NCBI RefSeq assembly: GCF_019649055.1
Contig: NW_026570252.1
Span: 310,001 to 374,000, forward strand
Source of the DNA: Paramacrobiotus metropolitanus
Taxonomy: Eukaryota; Tardigrada; Eutardigrada; Parachela; Macrobiotidae
Length of the DNA: 64,000 bases
Direction: 5' to 3'
The translations under genes and the position numbers were made by a program. Below the pieces are notes generated by a model. It ran no database searches and had not been told where the DNA came from. It was given only the letters and a program-made list of their open reading frames with translations. Positions 4,521 to 61,887 of this stretch are shown here, in pieces (positions within the stretch are counted from its first letter, which is position 1; every line of letters begins with the position of its first letter).

Positions 4521-4585
4521 TTCAACGGCCTTTGGCGACCGCCACGATCGTATTCCGAACCCCCGTTTGATCTGCCATATCAAAA

Positions 4586-7500
4586 ATGAGCAATTTCACG
4601 GTGAACTACTTCACGGTGCCGGTAGACGCTCTCCCCGAGGACATGGTCTACGGCCTGACCAACCGCGTCATGATCGTCGTGTACAGTCTCCTCATGCTGG
4701 CCTCCCTACTGGTCAATCTCATCTTCATCAGCATCCTCATCCGCCGCCGTCACCGTACCCGCACCCACTACCTCATGATCAACCTGTGCTTATCCAACTT
4801 CTACCTGGTCCTCGTGGAGATGCCGCTGCAGATCGCCTGGAACACCAGCGTCATGTGGACCGGCAGTGACGGATTATGTCGGGCGCTGGCGTATCTCAGC
4901 ATCATCGGACTGTACGGGAACGCGTTCTTCACGGTGGCGATTGCGCTGGACCGGTGGCAGTCGATTTCGCGGACGACGACCAAGGGGAAGTTGTCGTGTT
5001 TTGAGTTGCGGAAGCAGCGGACACGGTGTATGATCGCGCTAGCGTGGATTATGGCGCATTTGTGCTCGGTACCGCAGGTATGTTGATTCGGGTGGATGTT
5101 GTAATTATGGTAGTGGGTACACTGTAATTCCGGGGTGGAGTGCGCGCTCCCGCTTCTTCCGGCGGGACAATAACCTTGTATTTACCTGAATGATAGGGTG
5201 TATTTTTGTTCAGTTTTATATCGTTAATAACATATGCGGCATTTCTTTTGCCGTTAATATACGATCAGTAAATACATATCCAAATATTTATAATTAATGA
5301 AGGAAATTCCCAAAAACTATAAGAACCTGTAATAACAGACTAACAGTAGAAGACGGCGTGTTTCTATAGTAAATATTTGAAGTAACTGTAGAACAGTTTC
5401 TCAATAAACAAGAAATACATGAAATGTACTTTCAAATAAAAAGATATTAGTTTTCCAGCAAGTAAAAAATATGCAGTATGCTTAATTAATAATTTTTTAA
5501 AATTTTTTGTCAGTTTTTGTTTATGTTTGCCTTTTTTATGTATTTTACATATTTTCACATATATTACGTATTTTTATATATTTTTTTATATTTTATATAC
5601 AGATATATTTATTTTTTATTTTTTTCTATATATTTATTTGTTTTTTATTGCCTATGGTTTTTTGTTATTATTTTCGTAATCTTTTTGTATTTTGCTTTTT
5701 CTTGTTCTTTTATATTTTAATTTTATTTTAGAAATCATTCGTTAGCGCATTTATTCAGGCATGATTCAGGTACGAATAAAAGCATGATAATTTTGTTATT
5801 GTTTTGAAAGCGATTAATACATCTGTGGCGCAGCGGAGCGTGCCGCAGCGCGTGCACTACAGTATTGTTTGTTGTGCCGTGTCTTGAGAAAACGCATTTA
5901 ATTATCCGATCATTTCCTCCGCATCAGCGCGCCGCCGCCCGGATATCCGGCGGCTTAATTCCGGGGCGCTGATGACGGGACTAGAAAACACCGTAATTAC
6001 CCGTATCAACTGTCTTAAGAACTCGACCAGGGCCATCTGCGTCCCCCCATCAAACATCCTGACTCTCGGAAACTTATTATCCGGTAGTTGCGAGCGCACG
6101 CTGTAAAACTGAGGAATTAGGAAAAGCCGGCTTTTGTTTTAAGGGGGAAATGAGCGGTAATTTGGTGGTGCTTGACGCGGGGCTATGCGATACATCCGGT
6201 ATAGCAGAGCACGGAAGTCTCGTGTCTGCAGACCGGTGATTTTTGCTAGCGTTTTTTGATTTTCGACGACGCAGCTGCGCAAGTAAAATTCGCTTCCGTT
6301 TAAAATGCAAATCTCGGCTGTTTAAATACCCGCATTAAGGAAACTTCCGTTCAAGATATCCGTTTTGGAATAATTATAAAAAAATGTCAGTAAGAAAACC
6401 CGGCAGTATCAAGATATCATCTTCTTGAATTTCTTATATTAGTATGAAAATTCCCTGTTTGGCAACCTACTTTGCCTTCGGTCCGGCAAAACTAATTTTA
6501 ATTTTCTGTAGCAATATTTACTGCTGTTTACCTGAATTCATTATTTATTTGTTTTTGTAATGGGGGACAAAATAATAAGTTTTAATTTTCTTCCTTCCCG
6601 ATTTTTTTACTTTTTTTGCCCTATTCATGCTTTTATGACAGTCATCGTTTTTGTCAACTAATACGTAAGTACTTAATTCTTTACTCGTTTTCACATATTT
6701 TGTAATACTTCATTATTTCGTTAAATGTTTAACTTTTCAGCGTCTAAACGAGAATACGTGTTTTATTTTCTCAATTTTTCCTCGTTACTTGTAATTTTTT
6801 ATGACGTTTGTTGCGTCACAATTTTTATTTAGCTGTCTGTTTTATTCGATATTAAATATTAATGTTTTTCCTATCCGATATTTTTTGCTCCACAAAAATT
6901 ATTGTAAACGCCCACAGTTGTCGAGAAGAAAAAATGTCGAACACCAGATAATAAGTCAATCACATCATCCGGGCTTAGCGCAAACCCACCCGGATCCCTG
7001 ATTATCCCAAGCCACATCCGGTCGATGTACGGCTGCAAACTCCGCCGTACACCGTCCCCAGTCGAAACGTATCGTGCTGCCTCGGCCATTAATCAATGCA
7101 CTTTTGTCCCGTCGTCTTAGTGCGATCAACAGCTGCACCTACGAATTAATACTTCTCCCGGAAGGAGCATTTCTCCCCCGGGTGCATTTAATTCTCACAG
7201 TGTCCCCCATCAACAACCAGCAGCATTAAATATTCCCGTCGAAAGGTTACTTTTGCCGGGTTCTAAAGTGCCTATCGTTCGCAACGGCGGCGTAACGCGT
7301 CGGCGGAACCGGATATTGCCACTGTAATATTCACCATACGGCTTTTTATCCAACCCTTCGATGAATATTCAAATAAGCTATCGATATGTTGACATGCATG
7401 CGTAATGGACTTTCTCCTGTTCCACAACAAAGTTGCCATATTTTTTCTATTGAACCGTCGGCCGTTCGGTTTATTGTACTCTGTACAGCCCGGCATAATC

Positions 7501-28600: not shown

Positions 28601-31005
28601 ATAACAAAGTAGTATAGAGTAATAAACTAAGTTCAAAAAATACTAATTTTTAAATATTTAGTTTTGATCATAAGTATGCAAAATGGTAAACGATGCATTT
28701 ATAAGAAAAAAATCTATAGATAAATTCCGAAAAAAATTGCTGTTATTTAAATAAAAAAAAATTATAGCAGTGACCTTTACCCGACTGCTCATCTCCGTAT
28801 AATCCTCGCCGGCATTCTGCACGATATCCTTCATAACGAAGATGGGACAGTACTTATCCGTGACCGGATGAAAGCGGCACGTGGCCAGATAACTGGCGTT
28901 CAGTGACGTCAGAATATTCCGTCGTTTCAGCTTGAATTTGGGAAACATGATGTGGTTCTTCACCAGCACCGTGAAATTCTCCGATCCGGCCAGATTCGGC
29001 GGGCTAAACAGAGCGGAAACGGTGCCCGTGTGTAAAATGTGAGTGTACATATGTGAGCGCTGTGAACGCCTACTGCGGCAGGATATCCTGCTCCGTCGGA
29101 CACCAAGCGCTGATCTCGCACGTGCCGTTAGAACAGCGTCCCGTGCGGAAACCGTTCCCGTTGATCACTGCCGTGCCGGCTGGGCATTCCGCGTCAACGC
29201 GGCAACGCACGTTGGGACTATTTACATTGCCGTCCTGTACATAAAAATAATATTTAACAACATTTATTGACAGTGTATTTTTGCGATATTTACGAGTACA
29301 TATTTTGTTGGTACTGCGATTATAAAATTAAAAGCAAATATCAGAATATTATAAAAACATTTTTACATAAAAAAATGTTAAAATTTTTTAACATACACAT
29401 ATACACATGCGCATGACATGACTTAAACATGTATTAAAACAAGCAAATAAAAATCAAAAATAAGAATCAAAAAATTTAACCACATAATAGCTACGTAAAC
29501 CGCAACCGAAAATTACAAAAGTCATTAGAATAAAAATAATATGTGATACAACAAGTAAATATATAAATTATTTAAAATGTTTCTGATAATGCAAATATGG
29601 AAAAACAGTGTTTCCACGTATCTACAGAGTACTTACATTAAAGCGTAAATATAACAGCCAATAAATTGTATTTACTTTGTACTTCTTAATAATATTTTCA
29701 GTTATTAAGAAGTACAGTTTACTTTCAGTTTACTTATGTGTACATACGTGTACTTCTGTGTACATACGTACATCGTAATTCACGTGTGTTTCGTTTCACT
29801 TTTTCAGCTAAGATTCACTTTATGCAGAACGTTGGTCGTTCTTATCGTACCTCGGGACAATCGGCCTGCACTTGATCCGGCGCAGCAATGAGATTGGTGG
29901 CAATAAAAAAGGCATTATTCTCCTGTGCAAAGTTGCCCGATATTACCAACAGCGCGCACTCCATCTTTGTCAGTGTGTGTACAGTATATACTAATCAGCA
30001 TCAGCATATAATAGGCACCTGTGGCGGAATGACGAAATCGATGCTGTCCCAGATGTGCGTGTTGAGCGGATAGGGCGGCGCCGTGCGGATCAGTCCCTTG
30101 ACTTTGGTCACTACGCTGCTCTCCACGTGGTCCACTTCCTGGTAGCCCTTGCTCCAGATGAAGACGTATCTGTGGAATGTGGATGCCCGTTAATAGACGA
30201 TGACAGAGATACAAATACGCTAATCAGCGCCACACAGGATGTGGTCGGCAGATTTCATGCGGCGATTGTAAAAACCAATTTCCTTTGAGAGATGGATACG
30301 TTTTTACGAGCCGGAAACATGTCGACGCTTACCCGATGACGTAGGCGACGATGGCGGCCTGCACCAGCCGGTGGATGGCGCCGATTTTTTTGCTGCGGAT
30401 ATTGATGATTTTCGGCGTTTCATAGCTGTTCGACAAAAAAATTATTAAAAACTACCGGTACAAAAATTTATTACAAACAAATTGGAAATCAGACAGCCGC
30501 TCCGCGGTTCAGCTATTTTAATAATAAAACCACCAAACAGTGTACAATAGAAACTCGTCTTTGGCGCATAAATCGCCGGCACTGGCTCTGCAAACAGAGA
30601 ATCGTTTGTTTGCCACATTTGGCATTAAAACGAAGCAACAGCACTTTTCAAACACGAACTATTTTGCTCTGCGCCGCAGGAAGATCCCATTGGACAGTTT
30701 CTTAAAATAAGCTACAGAGCAAAGTAGCTAATGATATATTTTTTCATTTTGATTTTTTCTAACATATCATTGTTAACAGTTAGAAAATTTATTTTATAAA
30801 AATTATTTTTGTACAATGAAAATATTTAATTTTTTTTACTTACCTACAATTGCACCGGAATATCTCAAACTGTTTTATTGGAAATATTAAAATAATTATT
30901 TGTCGAAAATGGTTTAACGTACGCAAAGAGAAAATCCGCACCGATATCCAGACAGCGCGTTATCCACGTGGACATCAGCGGTTTGGACTGCATCGGGCTG
31001 GCCAT
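25637..31005 (-). CDS. P2X purinoceptor (ATP-gated cation channel)
   Basis: Ten minus-strand exons: 31005-30923, 30425-30333, 30169-30019, 29922-29851, 29234-29074, 29003-28781, 28156-28026, 27941-27782, 26724-26626 and 25846-25637. All phases fit, giving 460 aa. The start at 31005 has the stronger context; an in-frame ATG at 31047 is possible. P2X subunits form trimers opened by extracellular ATP, passing Na+ and Ca2+. Seen: the N-terminal TPK site (YETPK), TM1 (VQAAIVAYVIGYVFIW), GYQE, the ATP-binding set K-V-K (TKVKG), NFT (ENFTVLVKN), NFR (GWNFR) and the lysine of MLKAYGIR, all ten ectodomain cysteines, and TM2 (NLGSGIGLLGMATLLCDFIL). The usual YxxxK after TM2 seems to read FKKHK. The tail is about 70 aa, rich in Asn, Lys and Arg. 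Introns hold no other gene. Confidence 0.95.
29679..29715. repeat. Perfect 14-bp hairpin in P2X intron
   Basis: GTACTTCTTAATAA at 29679 is followed after nine bases by its exact reverse complement ending at 29715. It is inside the third-exon to fourth-exon intron region of P2X. Purpose unknown; AT-rich hairpins arise easily. Confidence 0.7.
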
Positions 31006-35044: not shown

Positions 35045-35305
35045 GAATCATTCGTACATGCTGAGGAAATAGCCGATTCGTACAAGCGCATTGTATGGAT
35101 CCGCATTGAGCGCATTCCTCGGTCAAACCGGTTTGTGAGTGGCTCAGGGAAATAGCCGATTCGTACAAGTGTGTCGTACGTGTGCTGCACCGTGTCCTCA
35201 TTGAGCGCGTTCCTCGGCTAAACCGGTTTGTGAGTGCCGCAGGGAAATAGCCGATTCGTACAAGTGTGTCGTACGTGTGCTGCATTGAGCGCACTCCTCG
35301 GTTGT
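35045..35305. repeat. ~90-base tandem repeat, about three copies
   Basis: A unit containing TTGAGCGCGTTCCTCGG, AAACCGGTTTGTGAGTG, AGGGAAATAGCCGATTCGTA and CAAGTGTGTCGTACGTGTGC occurs twice in full (from about 35104 and 35193), with partial copies before (about 35045) and after (to 35305). It ends about 400 bases upstream of the permease start codon. Open frames in it simply repeat with the unit. Confidence 0.8.
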
Positions 35306-35700: not shown

Positions 35701-38700
35701 ATGGCGCCGGATTACGAGATGAAAGATGTTACGAATCCACCGCCACCTTATCTGGCCACGGTAAGCCACATTTTTCCCAACTTAAAAATTATTCCTTGCA
35801 TTTTCATTTTTTTCCTGAATTTTTCCCTTTTAATTTATTTTTTTATTTAAAAAAAATCATTTTTGTTCTGAAGCTGATTACAACAACTTTTTAAATTTAG
35901 TTTCCTTCGTGTATTTAACAAGAACAGCGAATAGGGTCACCTTCCGCTTTTGCGTAACAATGCCACCACTTTTTATAGCTTCCTGATAAAAAAGGAAAAA
36001 CATTCCATTGACTAACATTTATGTAGCGAATTTCCCAATAAAAACGGAAAACCGGTTGTTTCCTGTATCGTGTCAACCTGTTTTTCGCGTCTACCGCGTC
36101 ACTTGATTGATAGCCGCTAAGTGTGCAATCAGCCTGCCGGCAATCAACAACTGAACTCGCCGAATTCTTGTGACCCTTCCTTACATTTTCGCTGCACGCT
36201 TTTTTTGTGATTAATGCAGATTTCCAGTTATTACTAATTTTTTGCGATATAAACACACAAAATTAGAAAGACTGGATTTCGCCGAAAGCGACACAAATTC
36301 AGTGGAAATTTGGTCTGGACTGAAACCTTTTGTCTTCTACATAGAGTTCTTATGCAACGCTTGGTCTTTGTCACATTACGCAGAATTCATCCGTGGTCAT
36401 TCCGATCCCGGATCTCGCGTCACAACCGTCATTTTTTCCTGCTGATTTCTGGTGATTTCAAAAATTCTTTTGTGCCGGCAGGGAATGCGTAAAACAACAC
36501 ACGCATCACACATTCTGTTTTCGTAGTTTTTCCGTCATTTCTAAATTCCGTTAACGAGCGTTCTGGTCTGATTGGCAAGCGCAAAATAATCGGATTTTTC
36601 GGCGGCTTACGCCACATGACGTACACTCGCTTTTCCATAAGAAAGGAATTTTATCTGTAAAAAACAACAATCGGCATAATTATTACGATCATCCAGGTGC
36701 TTTGATATTGTACCGACAATGCCGTGTCCGCGATTTTTGTCAATTGCCGAGCGCGTCAGTCAGCCGGCGGTGACGCGGCGCAATTTATTCATGCTTATCG
36801 CGAGGATCTCGTGAAAAATTAATTTTATGATTATTGCTGCCAAATTCGCTGTTCATTAAAATGCGCAGCGCACCCGTGGCGGTTTATCGGATGACAGAGA
36901 ATTTTTTTAAAAAAACCGGCAGAGGAAGAATTATGATGAATAATTCCTCGGTTATAGAGGTGCGGCACGATGATACTCTACCAAAGAATTACGCATATCT
37001 CTGTACCTGTTCAGGCGAAGAAAAACCTTTACTGAATTCCCAGTAGAACATTTTTCCAAATTTCTTAAAGTCACCAGAAACTGGGATAACTGTTAAACTC
37101 CACAAACACAGGCGGACACAAGATATCGTTAGAAAACATAAGCAACATGTACAACGCATCGTAGTGCAGTGGCTACACCATTTCCTGAGAGCTGTCGAAG
37201 TCAACACTTAAATTCAATTTGGCAACGCAAATGTCAAGTTATTACTTTATCGTTAATTTTTTCTGGCTATAAACCTATTGAAAATCAGTAGTTTATTGTA
37301 AGCTTTTTTTGCAATTGTGAACCGGGTCTCTTATCTTCGATCGAAAAACAGAAAACTGTTTTGCTGCATTTTTCTACGAGTACAAACCTGATGGTTTTTA
37401 AATGCTTTGTATAATAAAAAATAAAGTAACGTATTTTAAAATATTAAGGACAATACGGATTAATTCCAAAATTAATTCAGTCATTCCGCTTCGGAAAAAT
37501 TAATTTTAATAACGGGAATATAGATTTATAAAGAAACAACGATTGTAAATTTTGAAACCCACGGTACGGTTAAATCTCTATGTTCGATTTGCAGCCGGAG
37601 AAGAAGACGCCACTCTGGAAGCAATGGATGCGCGATTACGTGGACTCCTTCAAGCCGATGCACCGCCCCGAACACCCCCACGCTCACCTCCCCACGGTGA
37701 CCGGGCAGACGGCGGCCGGCGATCCGGAGAAGCACCCGGACGTCACGCCACCCTCCAGCGGGAGTATCGGCCTGAAGCTGGTCCTTAAGAACCGTCACAT
37801 GCAGATGATCGCCATTGTAAGCCAACCAATAACAAAATAAATTAAATATTCTGGTTAATAAATAAAATCAAAACAAAAACATGAGACCATAATTAACATG
37901 AGACCATAATTAATTAATTAATTATCATGAGACCATAATTAATACTCTGGGTGTTAATTGAAAATTCACAAGCTTAGTTCAAATTAAATTTACTAGAACA
38001 ACCTTGATTAATTGTTAGTACGAAGATGAATATTTTATGATCGTATAGAAGCAGTAAAGCATTAGTTGTTGCTTCATGCACATTTATAATATTGTTAGAA
38101 ATTTGGATTATTAAAAATCTGAGTTACTGTACGTTTACACATTGTTTTTGCTTACTTTTATAAGACGAGATGTGTTGTATTACATTGTTCTGCATTTTCG
38201 GTTTTTGTTGGAACATTATTTTTTCTGGTCGATTTCTTACGATTATTTTATGTTTTTGTTTCCAACTATCCCAGAATTTTGTAGTACTTACCAAATCATT
38301 TGTACCCGAGGCCGAGAAAAATTATTTTTCATGCGAGCGAAATGCGAGGAAAGTGTTGTGGCGGGTTCCTCATGTGAAACTGGTGTTCGATAATAATAAT
38401 AATAAAAATAATAGTAAACATCGTCTGGTGTGATCGATGTAGGGCGGCGCCATCGGCACCGGTCTGTTCATCGGCTCAGGCGGAGTCCTCTCCGACGGCG
38501 GCCCGGCCTCCCTCCTCATCGGCTTCATCCTGATCGGGATGATGCTTTTCAACGTGGTGATGGCGCTGGGCGAACTGGCCGTGTTATACCCCATCGCCGG
38601 CTCCTTCAACGTCTACGCCAGCCGCTTCATCGACCCGGCATGGGGCTTCGCCATGGGCTGGAACTATGCGCTGCAGTGGCTGGTGGTCCTCCCGCTGGAG

Positions 38701-40993
38701 CTCACCGCGGCCGCCATCACCATCGACTACTGGACGGAGAAGAGCATCAACTCGGGCATCTGGATCGCCGCGTTCCTGCTCGGGGTCATCGTTATTAATT
38801 TCTTCGGGGTGCGCGGGTATGGCGAAGCGGAGTTTATCTTCTCCATGATCAAGGTGGCGGCGGTCATTGGGTTCATTATTCTGGGGGTGGTGATTGACTG
38901 CGGTGGGGCGCCGAAGGGCGGATATCGCGGAGCCGATACATGGTGAGTGAAATTGTGTAAACCAATACTAACAGCATATACTGTATTTTATATTTATTAA
39001 TTAAGTATATAGCCTGACTAGCGTTTGAATTTGTTCTTATTCATGCATGAATCTTTTTCATATTAATAAAAAAATATCAATATAAAATTTACATTACTAA
39101 TGAGTAATAATTTATTATATTACAAGTGAATAATTAATTTATTATTTTGTTTATGAATATTATTTTAGTTTTTTAATATTATTTATTTACTTGTCAAATT
39201 TTATTCTTTAATTAATTATTATAGAAGTTTTCCATTGATTAAACAAGTATTACTAATTAGTTTATCATTTTATGAGTAAACTGGCGTTAATCGTGTGCAT
39301 ATTACTGGTATTTTGTGGTTGTTTTAAAGGTACGACCCGGGTGCCTTTAACAACGGCTTCAAGGGTTTCTGCGCGGTATTCGTGACGGCGGCCTTCGCCT
39401 TCGGCGGCACGGAGATGGTCGGCCTGGCCGCCGCCGAGTCGCATAACCCGCGCAAAACCCTGCCGCGCGCCACCAAGCAGGTCTTCTGGCGCATCACCAT
39501 CTTCTACGTCATCTCCCTGTTCCTCGTGGGGCTCCTGGTGCCCTATGACCACCCGCGGCTCCTCAACAAGAAATCCGCCTACGACGCCGCCGCCTCGCCC
39601 TTCGTCATCGCCATCGAGGACGCCGGTATCAAAGTCCTCCCGTCCATCTTCAACGCCGTCATCCTGGTGTCGGTGTTGTCGGTGGGCAACTCAGCCGTGT
39701 ACGGCTCGTCACGGACCCTTTCGGCCATGGCCCACCAGGGCCAGGCACCAAAGTTCCTGGGCTACATTGACCGGCAGGGTCGTCCGCTCTTCGCCATCAT
39801 CCTGGCGTTGACCCTCGGACTCCTGGCCTTCGTCAACGAGAGCGCCCATTCCACCGACATCTTCAACTGGTTGCTGGCCATCTCCGGGTTGTCGACTATC
39901 TTCACCTGGATGTCCATCTGTTGGGCGCATATTCGGTTCCGACAGGTGCGGTCTCTTCGAATGTCTCGCTTTCGTTCTTGATTAATAAAACGTTTCATTC
40001 GAATCTCTAACTTTCGCTCTTGATTAGGTAATTAAAAGTTTCCTTCGAATCTCTTACAGTTCGTGGGAAATTAGAATATCTTCTAGCTTTCGGTTTCGAT
40101 CTTCTAGCTTTCGTTTTTTTATTAAAAGAAATTATTATTAAAAGAAATTATTATTTATTAAAAGAAATTATTATTTTTTATTTTTTTTATTATTATTTTT
40201 TCCAATCTTTAAATTTCGGTCGTGATTACCGAAAATATATTTCGAAGCTTTAACGTTCGTTCTTGACGTATCAATGGAGACGTTCCTTTGAACCTCTTGC
40301 TTTCGTTTTTGGATAACGAAAATATTGATTCGAACTTCTGATTTCGGTTTTTCATTAAAGAAAACTTTTCTTCGGATATCTAACTTTCGTTATTGAATAA
40401 GAAAAATTCATCTTCAAACTGTAGTTTTTTCTGGATAAATGAAAGTATTCCTTCGAATTTCTCGCTTTTATCTTTGAACTCTTTTTTCCGAGCCTCTCGC
40501 TTTTATTCCTGGTATATCAAAACGTTCCTTTTACGCTCTACTTTCGTTCTTGATTAATGAAAACATCCATGTCCTATCTTTCCAGGCATGGAAAGCTCAG
40601 GGTCACACGCTGGACGAACTGCCGTTCCGCGCGACGTTCGGCGTCTGGGGCTCGGTGTACGGAATGGGCTTCAACATCCTGATCCTCATCGCGCAGTTCT
40701 ACGTGGCCGTGTCGCCGTTGAAAGGCGAACCGTCCGCCGCCGATTTCTTCAGCGCGTATTTGGCCGCGCCCATCGTCTTGGCGTTCTACGTGGTGTGGAA
40801 GCTAATCAAACGGACCCCGTTCATGGTGACAACGAAGGGGAATAAAGAGGGCTTCTGGCTCTTCCGCACGGAGACCATCGATCTGATGAGCGGGCGACGG
40901 GATCTGGATCTGAAGGAGATCCTGGCGGAGGAGCGGGCGCGGCATGCGGAGCTACCGGCGTGGAAGCGCTTCTATATCCATATTTGTGGTTAA
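35701..40993 (+). CDS. Fungal-type amino-acid permease (GAP/YAT family)
   Basis: Five exons: 35701-35760, 37595-37816, 38443-38942, 39330-39945 and 40586-40993. Phases agree (0, 0, 2, 0), giving 601 aa. The ATG sits in a strong ACCATGG context. Plasma-membrane proton-coupled uptake of amino acids is the known job of this family (TC 2.A.3.10). About twelve helices; the first motif GGAIGTGLFIGSGG starts at residue 95, followed by YPIAGSFNVYASRF, ESHNPRKTLPRATKQVFWRI, NSAVYGSSRTLSAMA and AWKAQGHTLDELPFRA, and the late MSGRRDLDL. These are the signatures of ascomycete GAP1/AGP-type permeases, not of animal SLC7 or SLC36 transporters. The length fits the family. All four introns have GT/AG ends, and intron 1 is 1.8 kb, unlike fungal introns. 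A PPPY motif lies in the short first exon. I infer horizontal transfer from a fungus. Substrate range cannot be read from sequence. Confidence 0.93.
37876..37945. repeat. Short tandem CATGAGACCATAATTAA repeat
   Basis: Three copies of CATGAGACCATAATTAA, with an ATTA run between the second and third, inside intron 2 of the permease gene. Confidence 0.8.
39960..40560. repeat. ~40-base degenerate repeat filling permease intron 4
   Basis: CTTTCGTTCTTGATTAATAA followed by ACGTTTCCTTCGAATCTCTA-like sequence recurs about twelve times with drift, filling almost all of intron 4. A TTATTAAAAGAAA sub-repeat sits near 40120-40190. The first copy begins right after the donor site. Confidence 0.7.
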
Positions 40994-41308: not shown

Positions 41309-41466
41309 CTTCCGTGAGTCTCACTGAAAATGCTGGGTATTATGGGAACAGAACCTCAACTGTGCTTCTCTTCGACAAATGGTTGCGATTAACCTCAAAG
41401 CTTGCTCGAGTAAAGCGATGCCAACTTCTTCAATCAGCCTGCTTCTTTAATCAGCCTCAACCGTGT

Positions 41467-42335
41467 CCGACCATTTCGGCATGGTGACATTTCGGCATAG
41501 GACATTTCGGCATAGGACATTTCGGCATAGGAGATTTCGGCATGAGGACATTTCGGCACGTGGACATTTCGGCATACGGGCATTCCTGCATAATACTGTT
41601 GTTTTCTAACGTTTTCTGTTTTAATTCGCTTTATTCAGCCTGCGTAGTGTGGACAGCGTCACTAAAATGCTTGCAATAAACAACATGAAATTAAAAAGCG
41701 GCTCCAGTTTTTTTATGTCTCCTTTGTAGTGCTATATCTTGGTATTCTTAGATCTTCTTTGGTTTTCTAGGCTTTCTCAGGTTTGCTTAGGATTCTTAGG
41801 TTTACATATATTTTCAGATCTTCTTGGCTTTTCTAAAGTTTTTATCAAATCCTCGCATTTTAACAAACGATTTTTCAAGTTTGCTAATGCATCTTATGTC
41901 TTCATGCGTTTCATTAATTTTATAAGGTTTTTGTTTTAATTTTGCTTTTTGGCTTGTTTTAGGTTAGCTAGGTTTTAGGATTTTTACGTTCTCAGTTTTT
42001 TTAAATTCTATGCGTATTTCCTTCACTTTCTTAGACTGAGTAAAATTGATTGGCATATTATAGGTTTCTTGCCATGGTCATCATTTTAGTAGCACAAGCT
42101 AGTTATCATGCACGAGTTTTACAACGAAAACAGTATTACAGTACGTAACAAAATTTCTTCTAATTTATCCGCCCTTTCCATCATGATTAGGTTTTATCAG
42201 TATATACTAAACTTTATGCCGAAATGTCCGTATGCCGAAATGTCCGTATGCCGAAATGTCCTTATGCCGAAATCTCTTATGCCGAAGTGTCCATTGCCGA
42301 AATGTCCCTATGCCGAAATGTCGGTACGCCGATTC
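41467..42335. mobile_element. Foldback-like element with ACATTTCGGCAT terminal arrays
   Basis: The left end (41467-41592) has about seven copies of ACATTTCGGCATAGG in tandem; the right end (42214-42335) has about seven copies of the reverse complement (TATGCCGAAATGTCC). Between them lie about 620 bases of T-rich DNA with many CTTAGGTTT and TTTTCTAGG words. No transposase. The architecture (inverted arrays of short direct repeats at both ends) is like Drosophila FB elements. A second element of the same build is at 49.69-50.24 kb. MPKCPYAEMS-like frames here are repeat translations. Confidence 0.75.
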
Positions 42336-48029: not shown

Positions 48030-48611
48030 TCCTATATATTAAAGCAGAACCGTTATTCCGGAACGCTCCTGCCTCCAAAACCTTCTGATTGGCCAGAAAA
48101 AACCTTACGTTTCTGATTGGCCGGAACTCGCCTAGCAACTTTTAAGCTTTTGCAGCCCCTTAACCCTGTGCTTTTACGCCTTTGTCCTTACTGAGTATCC
48201 GAAACTTAGTTTCATCACCTGTGAAAACCTTCGCCTGATAAACCGGATTCCACCCTTATCTATCTCTACTCCTTACTAAGCTTCAAAACCATAGTTCTTT
48301 AACAAACCTGATAACTTTAATTACTTTAACAAACCTTGCGGTCCCACCTTTTAAGCGTTTGGTAACCGAAGGCCACGCGTGCGGTACCCGCCTTTTTGAG
48401 CCATTGGTCACCGAATGCCACGCGAGCGGTATCCGCCTTTTTGAGACTTTGGTCACCGAAGGCCACGCGTGCGGTACCCGCCTTTTTGAGCCATTGGTCA
48501 CCGAAGGCCACGCGTGCGGTACCCGCCTTTTTGAGCCTTTGGTAGCCGAAGGCCGCGCGTGCGGAACTCACCCAAAAAGACGCAGCTGACCTGAATCGCC
48601 TTTGCACTGCA

Positions 48612-48806: not shown

Positions 48807-49692
48807 TGACGCGGCCCACGGTTACAAACGGCTTAAAAGTGTGGGTCTAAAGGCCATCAGTGACCAAAGGCTTAAAAGGCCTTCAGTGACCAAAGGCTTA
48901 AAAGGCCTTCGGTGACCAACGTACCACCCGCGTGGCCTTCGGTGACCAAAGGCTCAAAAAGGCGGGTACCACGCGCATGCCCTTCGGTGACCAAAGGCTC
49001 AAAAAGGCGGGTACCACGCGCATGGCCTTCGGTGACCAAAAGCCAAAAAAAAGCGGGTACCGCACGCGTAGCCTTTCGGTGACCAAAAGCTAAAAAAAAA
49101 GCGGGTACCGCACGCGAGGCCTTCAGTGTCCAAAGGCTCAAAAGGGCGGGTACCGCACGCGGGGCCCTCGGTGACCAAAAGCTCAAAAAGGCGGGTACCA
49201 CGCGCGTGGTCTTCGGTGATCAAAGGCTCAAAAAGGCGGGTACTACACGCGTAGCCTTTCGTGACCAAATGCTCAAAAAGGCGGGTACTACAGGCGTAGC
49301 CTTTCGTGACCAAAAGCTCAAAAAGGCGGTTACCACGCGCGTGGTCTTCGGTGATCAAAGGATCAAAAAGGCGGGTACTACAGGCGTAGACTTTCGTGAC
49401 CAAAAGCTCAAATGGGCGGTTACCACACGCGGGGCCTTCGGTGACCAAAGGCTCAAAAAGGCGGGTACCGCACGCGTCGTCCTCGGTGACCAAAGGCTTA
49501 AAAGGGCAGGTGCCGACTTCGGTTACTAAAGGCTTAAAAGGTGGTACCGCAAGGTAAATAAAGGCTTAAAAGACGGTACCGGTAAGTTAATTAAAGTTAT
49601 CAGGTTTCTTAAAGAACTAATGTTTGGAAGCTTAGTAAAGAGCAATGCTGAAGCTGGGATCCGGTTTATCAGGCTAAGGTTTTCACAGGTGA

Positions 49693-60530: not shown

Positions 60531-60871
60531 CTATTGCACTGGTTGACAGCGAAATAAGTTCTTTATGGCTTTTGGCAAGTTAGGCAAACTCGCGTGGTAG
60601 ATGATGGGGTTAAACATGCAGCTCAGATACTGCAGACAGGTAGCCGCTATATAAAGATTATCGTTCCAATAATCAGCAAATTCCACTGATAGATAGTAGA
60701 TCGTCGGCGGAACGAAGCAGACGAGGTCACAAATGGCCAACAGCGCAAACAATCGGTATTTTTTAGCGTCTTCTATCCTTCGCCTGCTGCGTCGTTTATC
60801 TGGCATGCCGACGCTAGACAAACTTATTTCCATTGACCCGGATTCCACCGTACTTGCCGGTTGCGTTCCAC
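60531..60871 (-). CDS. Class A GPCR, C-terminal exon (TM6-TM7), partial
   Basis: An acceptor (ATGGTCAG) at about 60872 opens an exon of 113 codons ending in TAG at 60531. It encodes a basic stretch (KRRSRRRIEDAKKYR), TM6 (FALLAICDLVCFVPPTIYYL, with the P6.50 region as CFVPP rather than CWxP), TM7 (ATCLQYLSCMFNPIIYHA, with NPxxY as NPIIY) and a short helix-8-like tail (KAIKNLFRC). The receptor subtype cannot be named. TM1-TM5 must lie upstream on the minus strand, above 60872, but I found no such exons before the window ends; a gag-like ORF sits there instead. The gene is either split by a long intron extending past the window or truncated by insertion. Confidence 0.7.
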
Positions 60872-60874
60872 CTG

Positions 60875-61887
60875 ACCATAATAACAAGGTAATAACAAGG
60901 TAATAACAATAATATTATGTATATTATTATATTATATAAAAACACAGTATTTTTGTAGCAGAAATGGTTTTGTTACAAGCTGTTTACGTTTTCCCTTGTT
61001 CTCCGGGTTAATTGTGTTGGCTTTGGAAATACGGATAATATACGTATAACTACGGTCTACGGGAGGCAAGAGGAAAAGGAAATTCCGTAACGGCCATGGG
61101 TTTATTCATTTGGGCGCGATGTTGTGCACCGGATCTTCTACGTTCTCTCATTCATGGCAAACAAACAGTGAACACAAAACAGCAGTACCACAAACTGTAC
61201 AAGTTTACGCGATACAAGAACAAATCATATTCTTTCACATGCCCAAGCAACCCAAAAGGGAGCACCACCAGCAACTTTAATCATAAGAGCGAAAAAAAAA
61301 TACCATTTATCTTCACATTCAGTTCTTTTCACGAATTTAATTTAATTTTCTTGCACTTGCTGGAACTGACCATAAAGAATTGCATTCAATCATTTCATCA
61401 ATTACATTCAATTATTTTCAAATTCTGAAACTTTGTTGGAGATGATCACAATTTACAAATAGGTACATTCCGCCATTTTTTGGAAATTAACCTTTCCTTT
61501 CAACATTCGTTGGAACTGACCATGATCAACAACCGCTGCACCACCATTATCAAAATACCTTTACATCGAACAATTTTCACAACTTTAGCCTTTAATTATT
61601 GCGTCTTGGCTGGAACTGACCATTACATTAATGACCTTACATTTAACCATCATACTCAACCGTTTTCACTAACCATTCAATAATCAATTTCAATTACCAT
61701 TTCATTTCCATTCAACCCTTCAACAATCAAAACATTTAATTTTACAAACTTTACCATCACTTAATAAATTGTGACACAATTTAACATTTTAACCAACAGC
61801 GCCATTCATGCCGAAATTCATTTGTTACTGATTAGCACAACCAATTCAAATATCACGCTGAACAACAACAATTAAAAGGTAGCAGTA
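60875..61887. other. AT-rich stretch with three TGGAACTGACCAT words
   Basis: TGGAACTGACCAT occurs at 61361, 61511 and 61611 in otherwise AT-rich, TTCATTCAAT-rich sequence. It lies directly 3' of the gag-like ORF (minus strand), so it may be the 3' part of that element. No reverse transcriptase, integrase or recombinase frame is visible. Confidence 0.45.

What the first reader, a model, noticed from the sequence alone, without database searches (positions are those of the whole stretch)
35701..40993. Fungal amino-acid permease captured by an animal genome
The 601-aa product carries the whole motif series of ascomycete GAP/AGP permeases, a family not native to animals. It sits on the same contig as animal P2X and peptide-receptor genes and is cut by four introns of 0.4-1.8 kb whose AT-rich repeats look like the local genome. 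That argues against contamination and for an old transfer followed by intron gain. The frame is intact, so it is probably in use.
Basis: partly seen in the sequence, partly recalled or inferred. Interest (0 to 1): 0.82.

Follow-up and report, generated by a model that had tools for sequence, protein, structure and literature searches.

The report
Fungus-like amino-acid pump in a tardigrade
A water bear carries, built into its own chromosome and split by introns, an intact copy of an amino-acid importer of a type best known from fungi, and the closest animal counterparts found sit in bdelloid rotifers, another group that survives drying out.

Summary
Five exons with GT-AG introns spell one 601-aa protein, identical to RefSeq LOC129588863 of the tardigrade Paramacrobiotus metropolitanus. 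It passes the cut-off of TIGR00913, the fungal YAT permease family. It belongs to the animal genome: P2X and GPCR exons on the same gap-free stretch, a genome-wide repeat just downstream, and an intact second copy 36 kb away with all four introns at the same positions and phases. Three relics of its last exon lie on the contig. dN/dS between the copies is 0.18. Nesting inside fungi was not shown: a tree with the fungal rows as one clade is not rejected. Fungal origin rests on family, patchy distribution in capped hit lists, and identity within the range among ascomycetes. A published genome study counts 112 horizontally acquired genes in this species (PMC8277472; list not readable here), so the kind is known.

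The parts
35701..35760 (+). exon 1 (codons 1-20)
   Evidence: GT donor GTAAGC; frame open; identical to RefSeq protein P0001
37595..37816 (+). exon 2 (codons 21-94), N-terminal tail and start of the first helix
   Evidence: tblastn 100%
38443..38942 (+). exon 3 (codon 95 to the first two bases of codon 261), with the GTGLF motif and Lys231
   Evidence: Lys231 invariant in 36 of 36 aligned proteins
39330..39945 (+). exon 4 (to codon 466), with G287-T288-E289
40586..40993 (+). exon 5 (codons 467-601 and stop), C-terminal tail ending WKRFYIHICG
35761..37594 (+). intron 1, 1834 bp, phase 0
   Evidence: GT-AG; same position and phase in the paralogue at C32:309327-306049; nearly single-copy
37817..38442 (+). 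intron 2, 626 bp, phase 0
38943..39329 (+). intron 3, 387 bp, phase 2
39946..40585 (+). intron 4, 640 bp, phase 0
   Evidence: nearly single-copy in the genome
41459..42330 (.). interspersed repeat with inverted terminal arrays of a 16-bp unit (CATTTCGGCATAGGA / TATGCCGAAATGTCCG); ties the locus to the tardigrade genome
   Evidence: TRF arrays 41472-41592 and 42215-42332; 141 rows for the 3' flank in the own genome, own place and self-inverse matches included
28763..29225 (-). flanking animal gene: two P2X receptor exons (28763-29002 and 29085-29225)
   Evidence: PF00864 82.6 and 44.3 bits, cut-off 27
4571..5086 (+). flanking animal gene: rhodopsin-type GPCR exon
   Evidence: PF00001 63.6 bits, cut-off 30.5
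60531..60914 (-). downstream flank: probable GPCR exon
   Evidence: PF00001 25.7 bits, below the cut-off 30.5

Best explanation
An ancestor of Paramacrobiotus took up a fungal-type (YAT, TC 2.A.3.10) amino-acid permease gene by horizontal transfer. The gene settled on what is now contig C32, carried four spliceosomal introns by the time it was duplicated, and the two intact copies have since been kept by purifying selection while partial copies of the last exon decayed. The product most likely works like its relatives: an APC-fold proton symporter that imports amino acids across a membrane with a proton gradient, for instance an apical gut, excretory or lysosomal membrane. Shown here: gene structure, identity with RefSeq, family, genome integration, shared introns, relics, dN/dS. 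Inferred: the direction and timing of transfer, intron gain after transfer, proton coupling, substrate range and tissue. The first two rivals below are versions of this explanation that differ in the donor.
For: Family: PF00324 545 bits, TIGR00913 636 bits over its cut-off of 579. In the 120 listed hits the named ones apart from the two own proteins are fungi and bdelloids (54-63% identity); in the PDB search animal SLC7 chains score 21-30 bits and bacterial LysP 340. Core identity to the Pezizomycotina group (28 rows, 3 of them unnamed or misbinned) averages 64.6%, against 68.0% for Saitoella-Pezizomycotina and 52.3% for Malassezia-Pezizomycotina, so the divergence lies within the fungal range. 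Integration: no N in the window or the six flanking pieces, P2X and GPCR exons, a repeat spread over the genome 0.5-1.3 kb past the stop, an inverted paralogue at C32:309327-306049 with 4 of 4 introns at the same positions and phases, relics at C32:300988-300600, 293148-292762 and 490734-491128. Of 8 TIGR00913 matches in the genome (E up to 10, 7 candidates scored), 6 lie in these two genes, one (22 bits) overlaps a relic and one has 16 bits. Selection: dN 0.18, dS 1.04. Fold: AlphaFold model pLDDT 77.8, pTM 0.79, best PDB match LysP 9eyd. 0 of 3 introns of the fungal homologue L011 coincide with the four here.
Against: A tree with 24 named fungi plus L011 as one clade against animals and bacteria is not rejected and is 4.12 log units better (p 0.582), so vertical descent with massive loss is not excluded by topology alone. 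The fungal sampling in hand is almost wholly Ascomycota with one basidiomycete gene model, because only the top 120 hits per search are returned. No expression or read data. GC3 of 84% and 70% is inside the range of neighbouring exons (51-84%), so composition says nothing either way. No Shr3 chaperone gene over the cut-off was found in the genome (best 17.7 bits, cut-off 25; the tool's 14 control genomes are prokaryotes, so no positive control), although yeast YATs are recalled to need it to leave the ER.
Confidence: 0.83

Rival explanations
1. Two separate transfers from related fungi, one into bdelloid rotifers and one into the Paramacrobiotus lineage, as published for trehalose synthesis genes in these groups (a version of the best explanation).
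For: With P0062 kept, the tardigrade joins P0062 (97/87) and rotifers join Saitoella (91/88). The tardigrade core is no closer to rotifers (65.6%) than to P0062 (66.9%), Lipomyces (65.7%) or the P0011 group (65.7%). PMC8277472 (passages and section 2.3 read) reports independent acquisition of TPS-TPP in two tardigrade lineages and in bdelloids.
Against: With four long rows dropped, tardigrade and rotifers form a clade (93/92), and the tree that holds them together is 1.85 log units better in the 54-row set.
Confidence: 0.5
2. One transfer shared by the two phyla: the tardigrade obtained the gene from a rotifer (rotifers are prey), or the reverse, or both received it from one donor lineage (a version of the best explanation).
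For: Tardigrade plus rotifer clade 93/92; not rejected, p 0.534. The TYO strain is reared on a rotifer, Lecane inermis (PMC8277472, passage; TYO is a strain of P. metropolitanus, PMC11191345, passage).
Against: The clade is absent from the free trees that include P0062; identities are star-like; Lecane is a monogonont, not a bdelloid; 57-63% identity to the listed bdelloid proteins speaks against a recent transfer.
Confidence: 0.2
3. Vertical descent: an old opisthokont permease kept by bdelloids and one tardigrade lineage and lost in nearly all other animals.
For: Fungal rows as one clade is not rejected, p 0.582.
Against: It needs loss in nearly all animal lineages; in the capped top-120 lists the only named animals are this tardigrade and bdelloids; the tardigrade core (64.6%) is closer to the Pezizomycotina rows than the one basidiomycete in hand is (52.3%), though that gene model is odd and may evolve fast.
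Confidence: 0.08
4. Contamination: a fungal contig or chimera in the assembly.
For: None found; misbinned fungal contigs do exist in public data (L011).
Against: Two copies plus relics among animal exons on a gap-free stretch, the genome-wide repeat next to it, introns of 20-38% GC, and no listed protein other than the two own ones above 65% identity.
Confidence: 0.01

Closest known systems
Fungal YAT family (GAP1/AGP-type amino-acid permeases, TIGR00913, TC 2.A.3.10)
   Same: Sequence family and motif series, 55-62% identity to the named ascomycete proteins listed, C-terminal tail with the conserved last cysteine.
   Different: In an animal; four introns, none shared with the one fungal gene examined; a Gly after the last Cys, seen in 2 of 186 proteins, both tardigrade.
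Bdelloid rotifer amino-acid permease-like genes (Adineta, Rotaria)
   Same: Same family, also in animals, 57-63% identity.
   Different: Their own tight clade (100/100); relation to the tardigrade genes unresolved; their gene structures were not seen here.
[quoted passage not shown] TYO (Hara et al. 2021, PMC8277472, passages read)
   Same: Foreign genes in the same species, several copies, with exons, parallel acquisition in bdelloids.
   Different: Trehalose synthesis, not transport; whether the permease is among the 112 listed genes (table S4) could not be read.
Bacterial LysP (PDB 9eyd)
   Same: APC fold; 37% identity over the aligned model; TM-score 0.86 by target length.
   Different: Outside the fungal family; mean core identity of the 5 bacterial rows to the tardigrade proteins is 37.6%.

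Membership tests
YAT amino-acid permease (TIGR00913) | Score over the curated cut-off | tested here: met
   636.2 bits, cut-off 578.7
YAT amino-acid permease (TIGR00913) | APC/LeuT fold | tested here: met
   AlphaFold pLDDT 77.8; LysP best PDB match, E 1.7e-25
YAT amino-acid permease (TIGR00913) | Conserved C-terminal cysteine | tested here: inconclusive
   Cys present but followed by Gly in both tardigrade copies; 173 of 186 proteins end in Cys
YAT amino-acid permease (TIGR00913) | Proton-coupled amino-acid uptake | not testable with these tools
   Lys231 and G287-T288-E289 invariant in 36 of 36, GTGLF nearly invariant; the roles of these residues are recalled
Animal SLC7 transporter | Closest similarity to animal SLC7 proteins | tested here: not met
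   SLC7A13, CAT1, CAT4 and Asc1 chains score 21-30 bits, LysP 340 bits
Animal SLC12 cotransporter (shares PF00324) | SLC12-type sequence | tested here: not met
   The gene passes TIGR00913; other PF00324 places in the genome are weak (up to 55 bits a piece), and the C118 place, the only one I read, looks like SLC12 (motif recalled)
Horizontally acquired gene in an animal | Physically integrated among native genes | tested here: met
Horizontally acquired gene in an animal | Donor clade identified | tested here: inconclusive
   Pezizomycotina rejected, p 0.0112; Saitoella p 0.075; P0011 group p 0.392; rotifers p 0.534
Horizontally acquired gene in an animal | Nested inside the donor kingdom with support | tested here: inconclusive
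   Nested in the free rooted tree, but fungal rows as one clade not rejected, p 0.582
Horizontally acquired gene in an animal | Expressed and spliced | not testable with these tools
   No read data; RefSeq model identical

The most novel reading that the evidence does not exclude
Two desiccation-tolerant animal groups, bdelloid rotifers and macrobiotid tardigrades, hold the same fungus-type amino-acid permease because the gene passed between animals (rotifer prey to tardigrade predator, or the reverse) or came from one common donor, and the tardigrade line then added four introns and amplified the gene locally.
Probability: 0.18. Interest if true: 0.75.

Novelty: new member of a known kind. 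Interest (0 to 1): 0.43.

Why it matters
Claims of foreign genes in tardigrades have been contested because of contamination (recalled). This one is unusually clean: a duplicated, intron-bearing gene with decayed relics around it, among P2X and GPCR exons. The shared introns put intron presence before a duplication with dS near 1, which makes intron gain in a transferred gene testable once the donor is found. The parallel presence in bdelloids resembles the published trehalose story and raises the question of why drying-tolerant microfauna keep fungus-type nutrient importers.

Tried and rejected
Considered and rejected: contamination (see rivals); animal SLC7 and SLC12; bacterial donor (in one search, 16 of 17 loci are 25-40% identical; the one at 61%, L011, is an intron-bearing fungal-type gene on a contig deposited as Deltaproteobacteria); anomalous composition as evidence of foreignness (GC3 lies within the neighbours' range); intron repeats as proof of locality (introns 1 and 4 are nearly single-copy). 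A viral carrier was looked for weakly: 138 pattern matches in viral contigs, none a relative, but the patterns came from the variable N-terminal tail and would find only close kin.

Led nowhere: naming the donor. Trees of 120, 61, 57 and 54 rows disagree on the tardigrade's sister: unresolved; P0062 plus the Malassezia halves; rotifers; P0062. AU tests: tardigrade + Pezizomycotina rejected, p 0.011; + Saitoella p 0.075; + P0011 group p 0.392, and rotifers + Saitoella + P0011 group without tardigrade p 0.364; + rotifers p 0.534; 24 named fungi plus L011 as one clade p 0.582. The groups were chosen after the first trees were seen, so these p values are rough. Presence in other tardigrades could not be checked with a control: no other named tardigrade is in the top-120 lists, but I had no search left to show that their proteins are in the database. 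Paper searches that gave listings only, nothing opened from them for this point: one paper, on early-diverging fungi; three papers with all five terms.

Rows dropped: one search used 59 of the 186 proteins in hand (61 rows: LysP, P0003 as two halves, 58 others); one search left out 4 of those 61 (LysP, two Malassezia halves, P0062); one search used 54 of 66 rows (12 left out by name in the script, the Malassezia halves among them). Nine unnamed rows were treated as rotifer-like because. In one search the Pezizomycotina group of 28 holds two unnamed proteins and L011.
Full report
Observation. The window is C32:310001-374000 of an assembly of 169.8 Mb in 533 contigs. The public protein database holds the identical sequence as RefSeq LOC129588863 of Paramacrobiotus metropolitanus, a eutardigrade, on a contig of 1,283,027 bp, the length of C32. 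A second protein, LOC129588858, is 75% identical and on a contig of the same length.

What it is. Pfam AA_permease 544.5 bits, AA_permease_2 116.4 bits; NCBIfam TIGR00913 636.2 bits, over the cut-off 578.7. Against solved structures, bacterial LysP scores 340 bits and animal SLC7 chains 21-30 bits. The AlphaFold model (pLDDT 77.8, pTM 0.79, 36 aligned proteins) has LysP as best Foldseek match, TM-score 0.86 by target length. In the alignment of 36 proteins Lys231 and G287-T288-E289 are invariant, and GTGLF (99-103) is nearly so. From established knowledge of APC transporters (recalled), the motifs in helices 1 and 6 bind the amino acid and a lysine in helix 5 takes part in proton coupling, so proton-coupled amino-acid import is the likely function.

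Is it in the animal? The window and the six flanking 10-kb pieces counted hold no N. P2X exons (82.6 and 44.3 bits) and a rhodopsin-type GPCR exon (63.6 bits) lie upstream; a GPCR exon downstream scores below its cut-off (25.7 of 30.5 bits). Half a kilobase past the stop codon begins a repeat with inverted terminal arrays; the 3' flank gives 141 rows in the genome on many contigs, its own place and self-inverse matches included. The paralogue lies at C32:309327-306049 on the other strand, also in five exons, with all four introns at the same positions and phases 0, 0, 2, 0. Intron lengths differ (1834/626/387/640 against 542/467/52/367 bp). In 122 kb of C32 searched exon by exon, two relics of exon 5 with stops lie at C32:300988-300600 and 293148-292762, 77-78% identical to the paralogue's DNA. 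A third stretch at C32:490734-491128 matches the end of the window gene's exon 5 and its 3' flank at 80% over 405 bp. Genome-wide, TIGR00913 gives 8 matches: 6 in the two genes, one of 22 bits at C32:300842-301333, overlapping a relic, and one of 16 bits on C48.

Selection and age. Between the two copies dN is 0.18, dS 1.04, ratio 0.18 (Nei-Gojobori). The duplication is therefore not recent and the pair has been constrained.

Origin. In three searches (120 rows shown each) the named relatives are fungi, all Ascomycota by their names except one Malassezia record (most placements recalled; Saitoella, Lipomyces and Malassezia checked), bdelloid rotifers (Adineta, Rotaria) and the two tardigrade proteins. 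ML trees (IQ-TREE, LG+C20 PMSF) give: 61 rows with LysP, tardigrade with P0062 and the Malassezia halves 97/86; 57 rows without long branches, tardigrade with rotifers 93/92, separate from Pezizomycotina 100/99; 54 rows with five bacterial rows, tardigrade with P0062 97/87, and tardigrades, rotifers, Saitoella and four unnamed rows together 100/99 inside a fungal grade. Tardigrade with Pezizomycotina is rejected (p 0.011). Tardigrade with rotifers is neither rejected nor shown (p 0.534). Against my reading: 24 named fungi plus L011 as one clade, with animals and bacteria outside, is not rejected and is 4.12 log units better. Mean core identities: tardigrade-Pezizomycotina 64.6%, tardigrade-rotifer 65.6%, Saitoella-Pezizomycotina 68.0%, Lipomyces-Pezizomycotina 72.8%, Malassezia-Pezizomycotina 52.3%, bacteria-tardigrade 37.6%. 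So the tardigrade genes are somewhat farther from Pezizomycotina than the other two ascomycete subphyla are, and nearer than the one basidiomycete in hand. With the patchy animal distribution this favours transfer, but it rests on few fungal lineages and capped lists.

Introns. The fungal homologue L011 (on a 314,690-bp contig deposited as a Deltaproteobacteria MAG) has three introns at P0001 codon 99 phase 1, about codon 239 phase 2 (chosen among ten candidates by homology), and codon 318/319 phase 0. None matches the tardigrade's codons 20, 94, 261 and 466. One fungal gene, not shown to be from the donor lineage, supports but does not prove intron gain after transfer.

Literature. Hara et al. 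2021 (PMC8277472; passages and section 2.3 read) describe the genome of Paramacrobiotus sp. TYO, classify 112 genes as horizontally transferred after the split from Hypsibioidea, and report parallel acquisition of TPS-TPP genes in tardigrades and bdelloids. 'Permease' and 'transporter' do not occur in its main text. Table S4 could not be opened. TYO is a strain of P. metropolitanus (PMC11191345, passage). Searches of the held library for 'amino acid permease' with 'tardigrade' and 'horizontal gene transfer' (0 papers) and with 'bdelloid' (0 papers) found nothing; 'fungal amino acid permease' with 'horizontal gene transfer' gave one paper, seen as a listing (PMC8778642). PMC13342648, a compendium of transfers in Metazoa (passages seen), has no 'permease' in its main text. 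PMC11191345 (passages seen) has no 'transporter' and one 'horizontal' in its main text. I therefore do not know whether this gene is already catalogued.

Verdict. Added here are the species, the intact inverted paralogue with identical intron positions, the relics, purifying selection, the bdelloid parallel, and the limits of the donor claim.

Noticed in passing
C32:300988-300600 and C32:293148-292762 (locus L034), C32:490734-491128 (locus L041): Decayed partial copies of the last exon (the third: its end plus 3' flank) of the permease on the same contig.
   Followed up: yes
window 41459-42330: Interspersed element with inverted terminal arrays of a 16-bp unit, spread over many contigs of the tardigrade genome; looks like a foldback-type transposon.
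   Followed up: partly
window 48242-48589 (+) and 48999-49565 (-): ORFs made of repeated VTEGHACGTRLFEPL-like units in opposite orientation, probably an inverted pair of minisatellite arrays.
   Followed up: no
L011 (NYXK01000071.1:259169-266815): Intron-bearing fungal-type permease gene on a 314-kb contig deposited as a Deltaproteobacteria MAG: probably a misbinned fungal contig in the bacterial genome collection.
   Followed up: partly
L034:6105-7136 (-), C32:298105-299136: 344-aa single-exon frame that looks like a 7TM receptor to the eye but matches no Pfam family at E 0.001.
   Followed up: partly
P0003 (Malassezia caprae MCAP1_000667): 929-aa gene model that joins two permease halves; this inflates its score in searches.
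   Followed up: partly
both tardigrade proteins, C-terminus: A glycine follows the otherwise terminal cysteine; seen in 2 of 186 proteins in hand.
   Followed up: partly
window 35100-35284: 95-bp unit repeated about twice upstream of the start codon.
   Followed up: no
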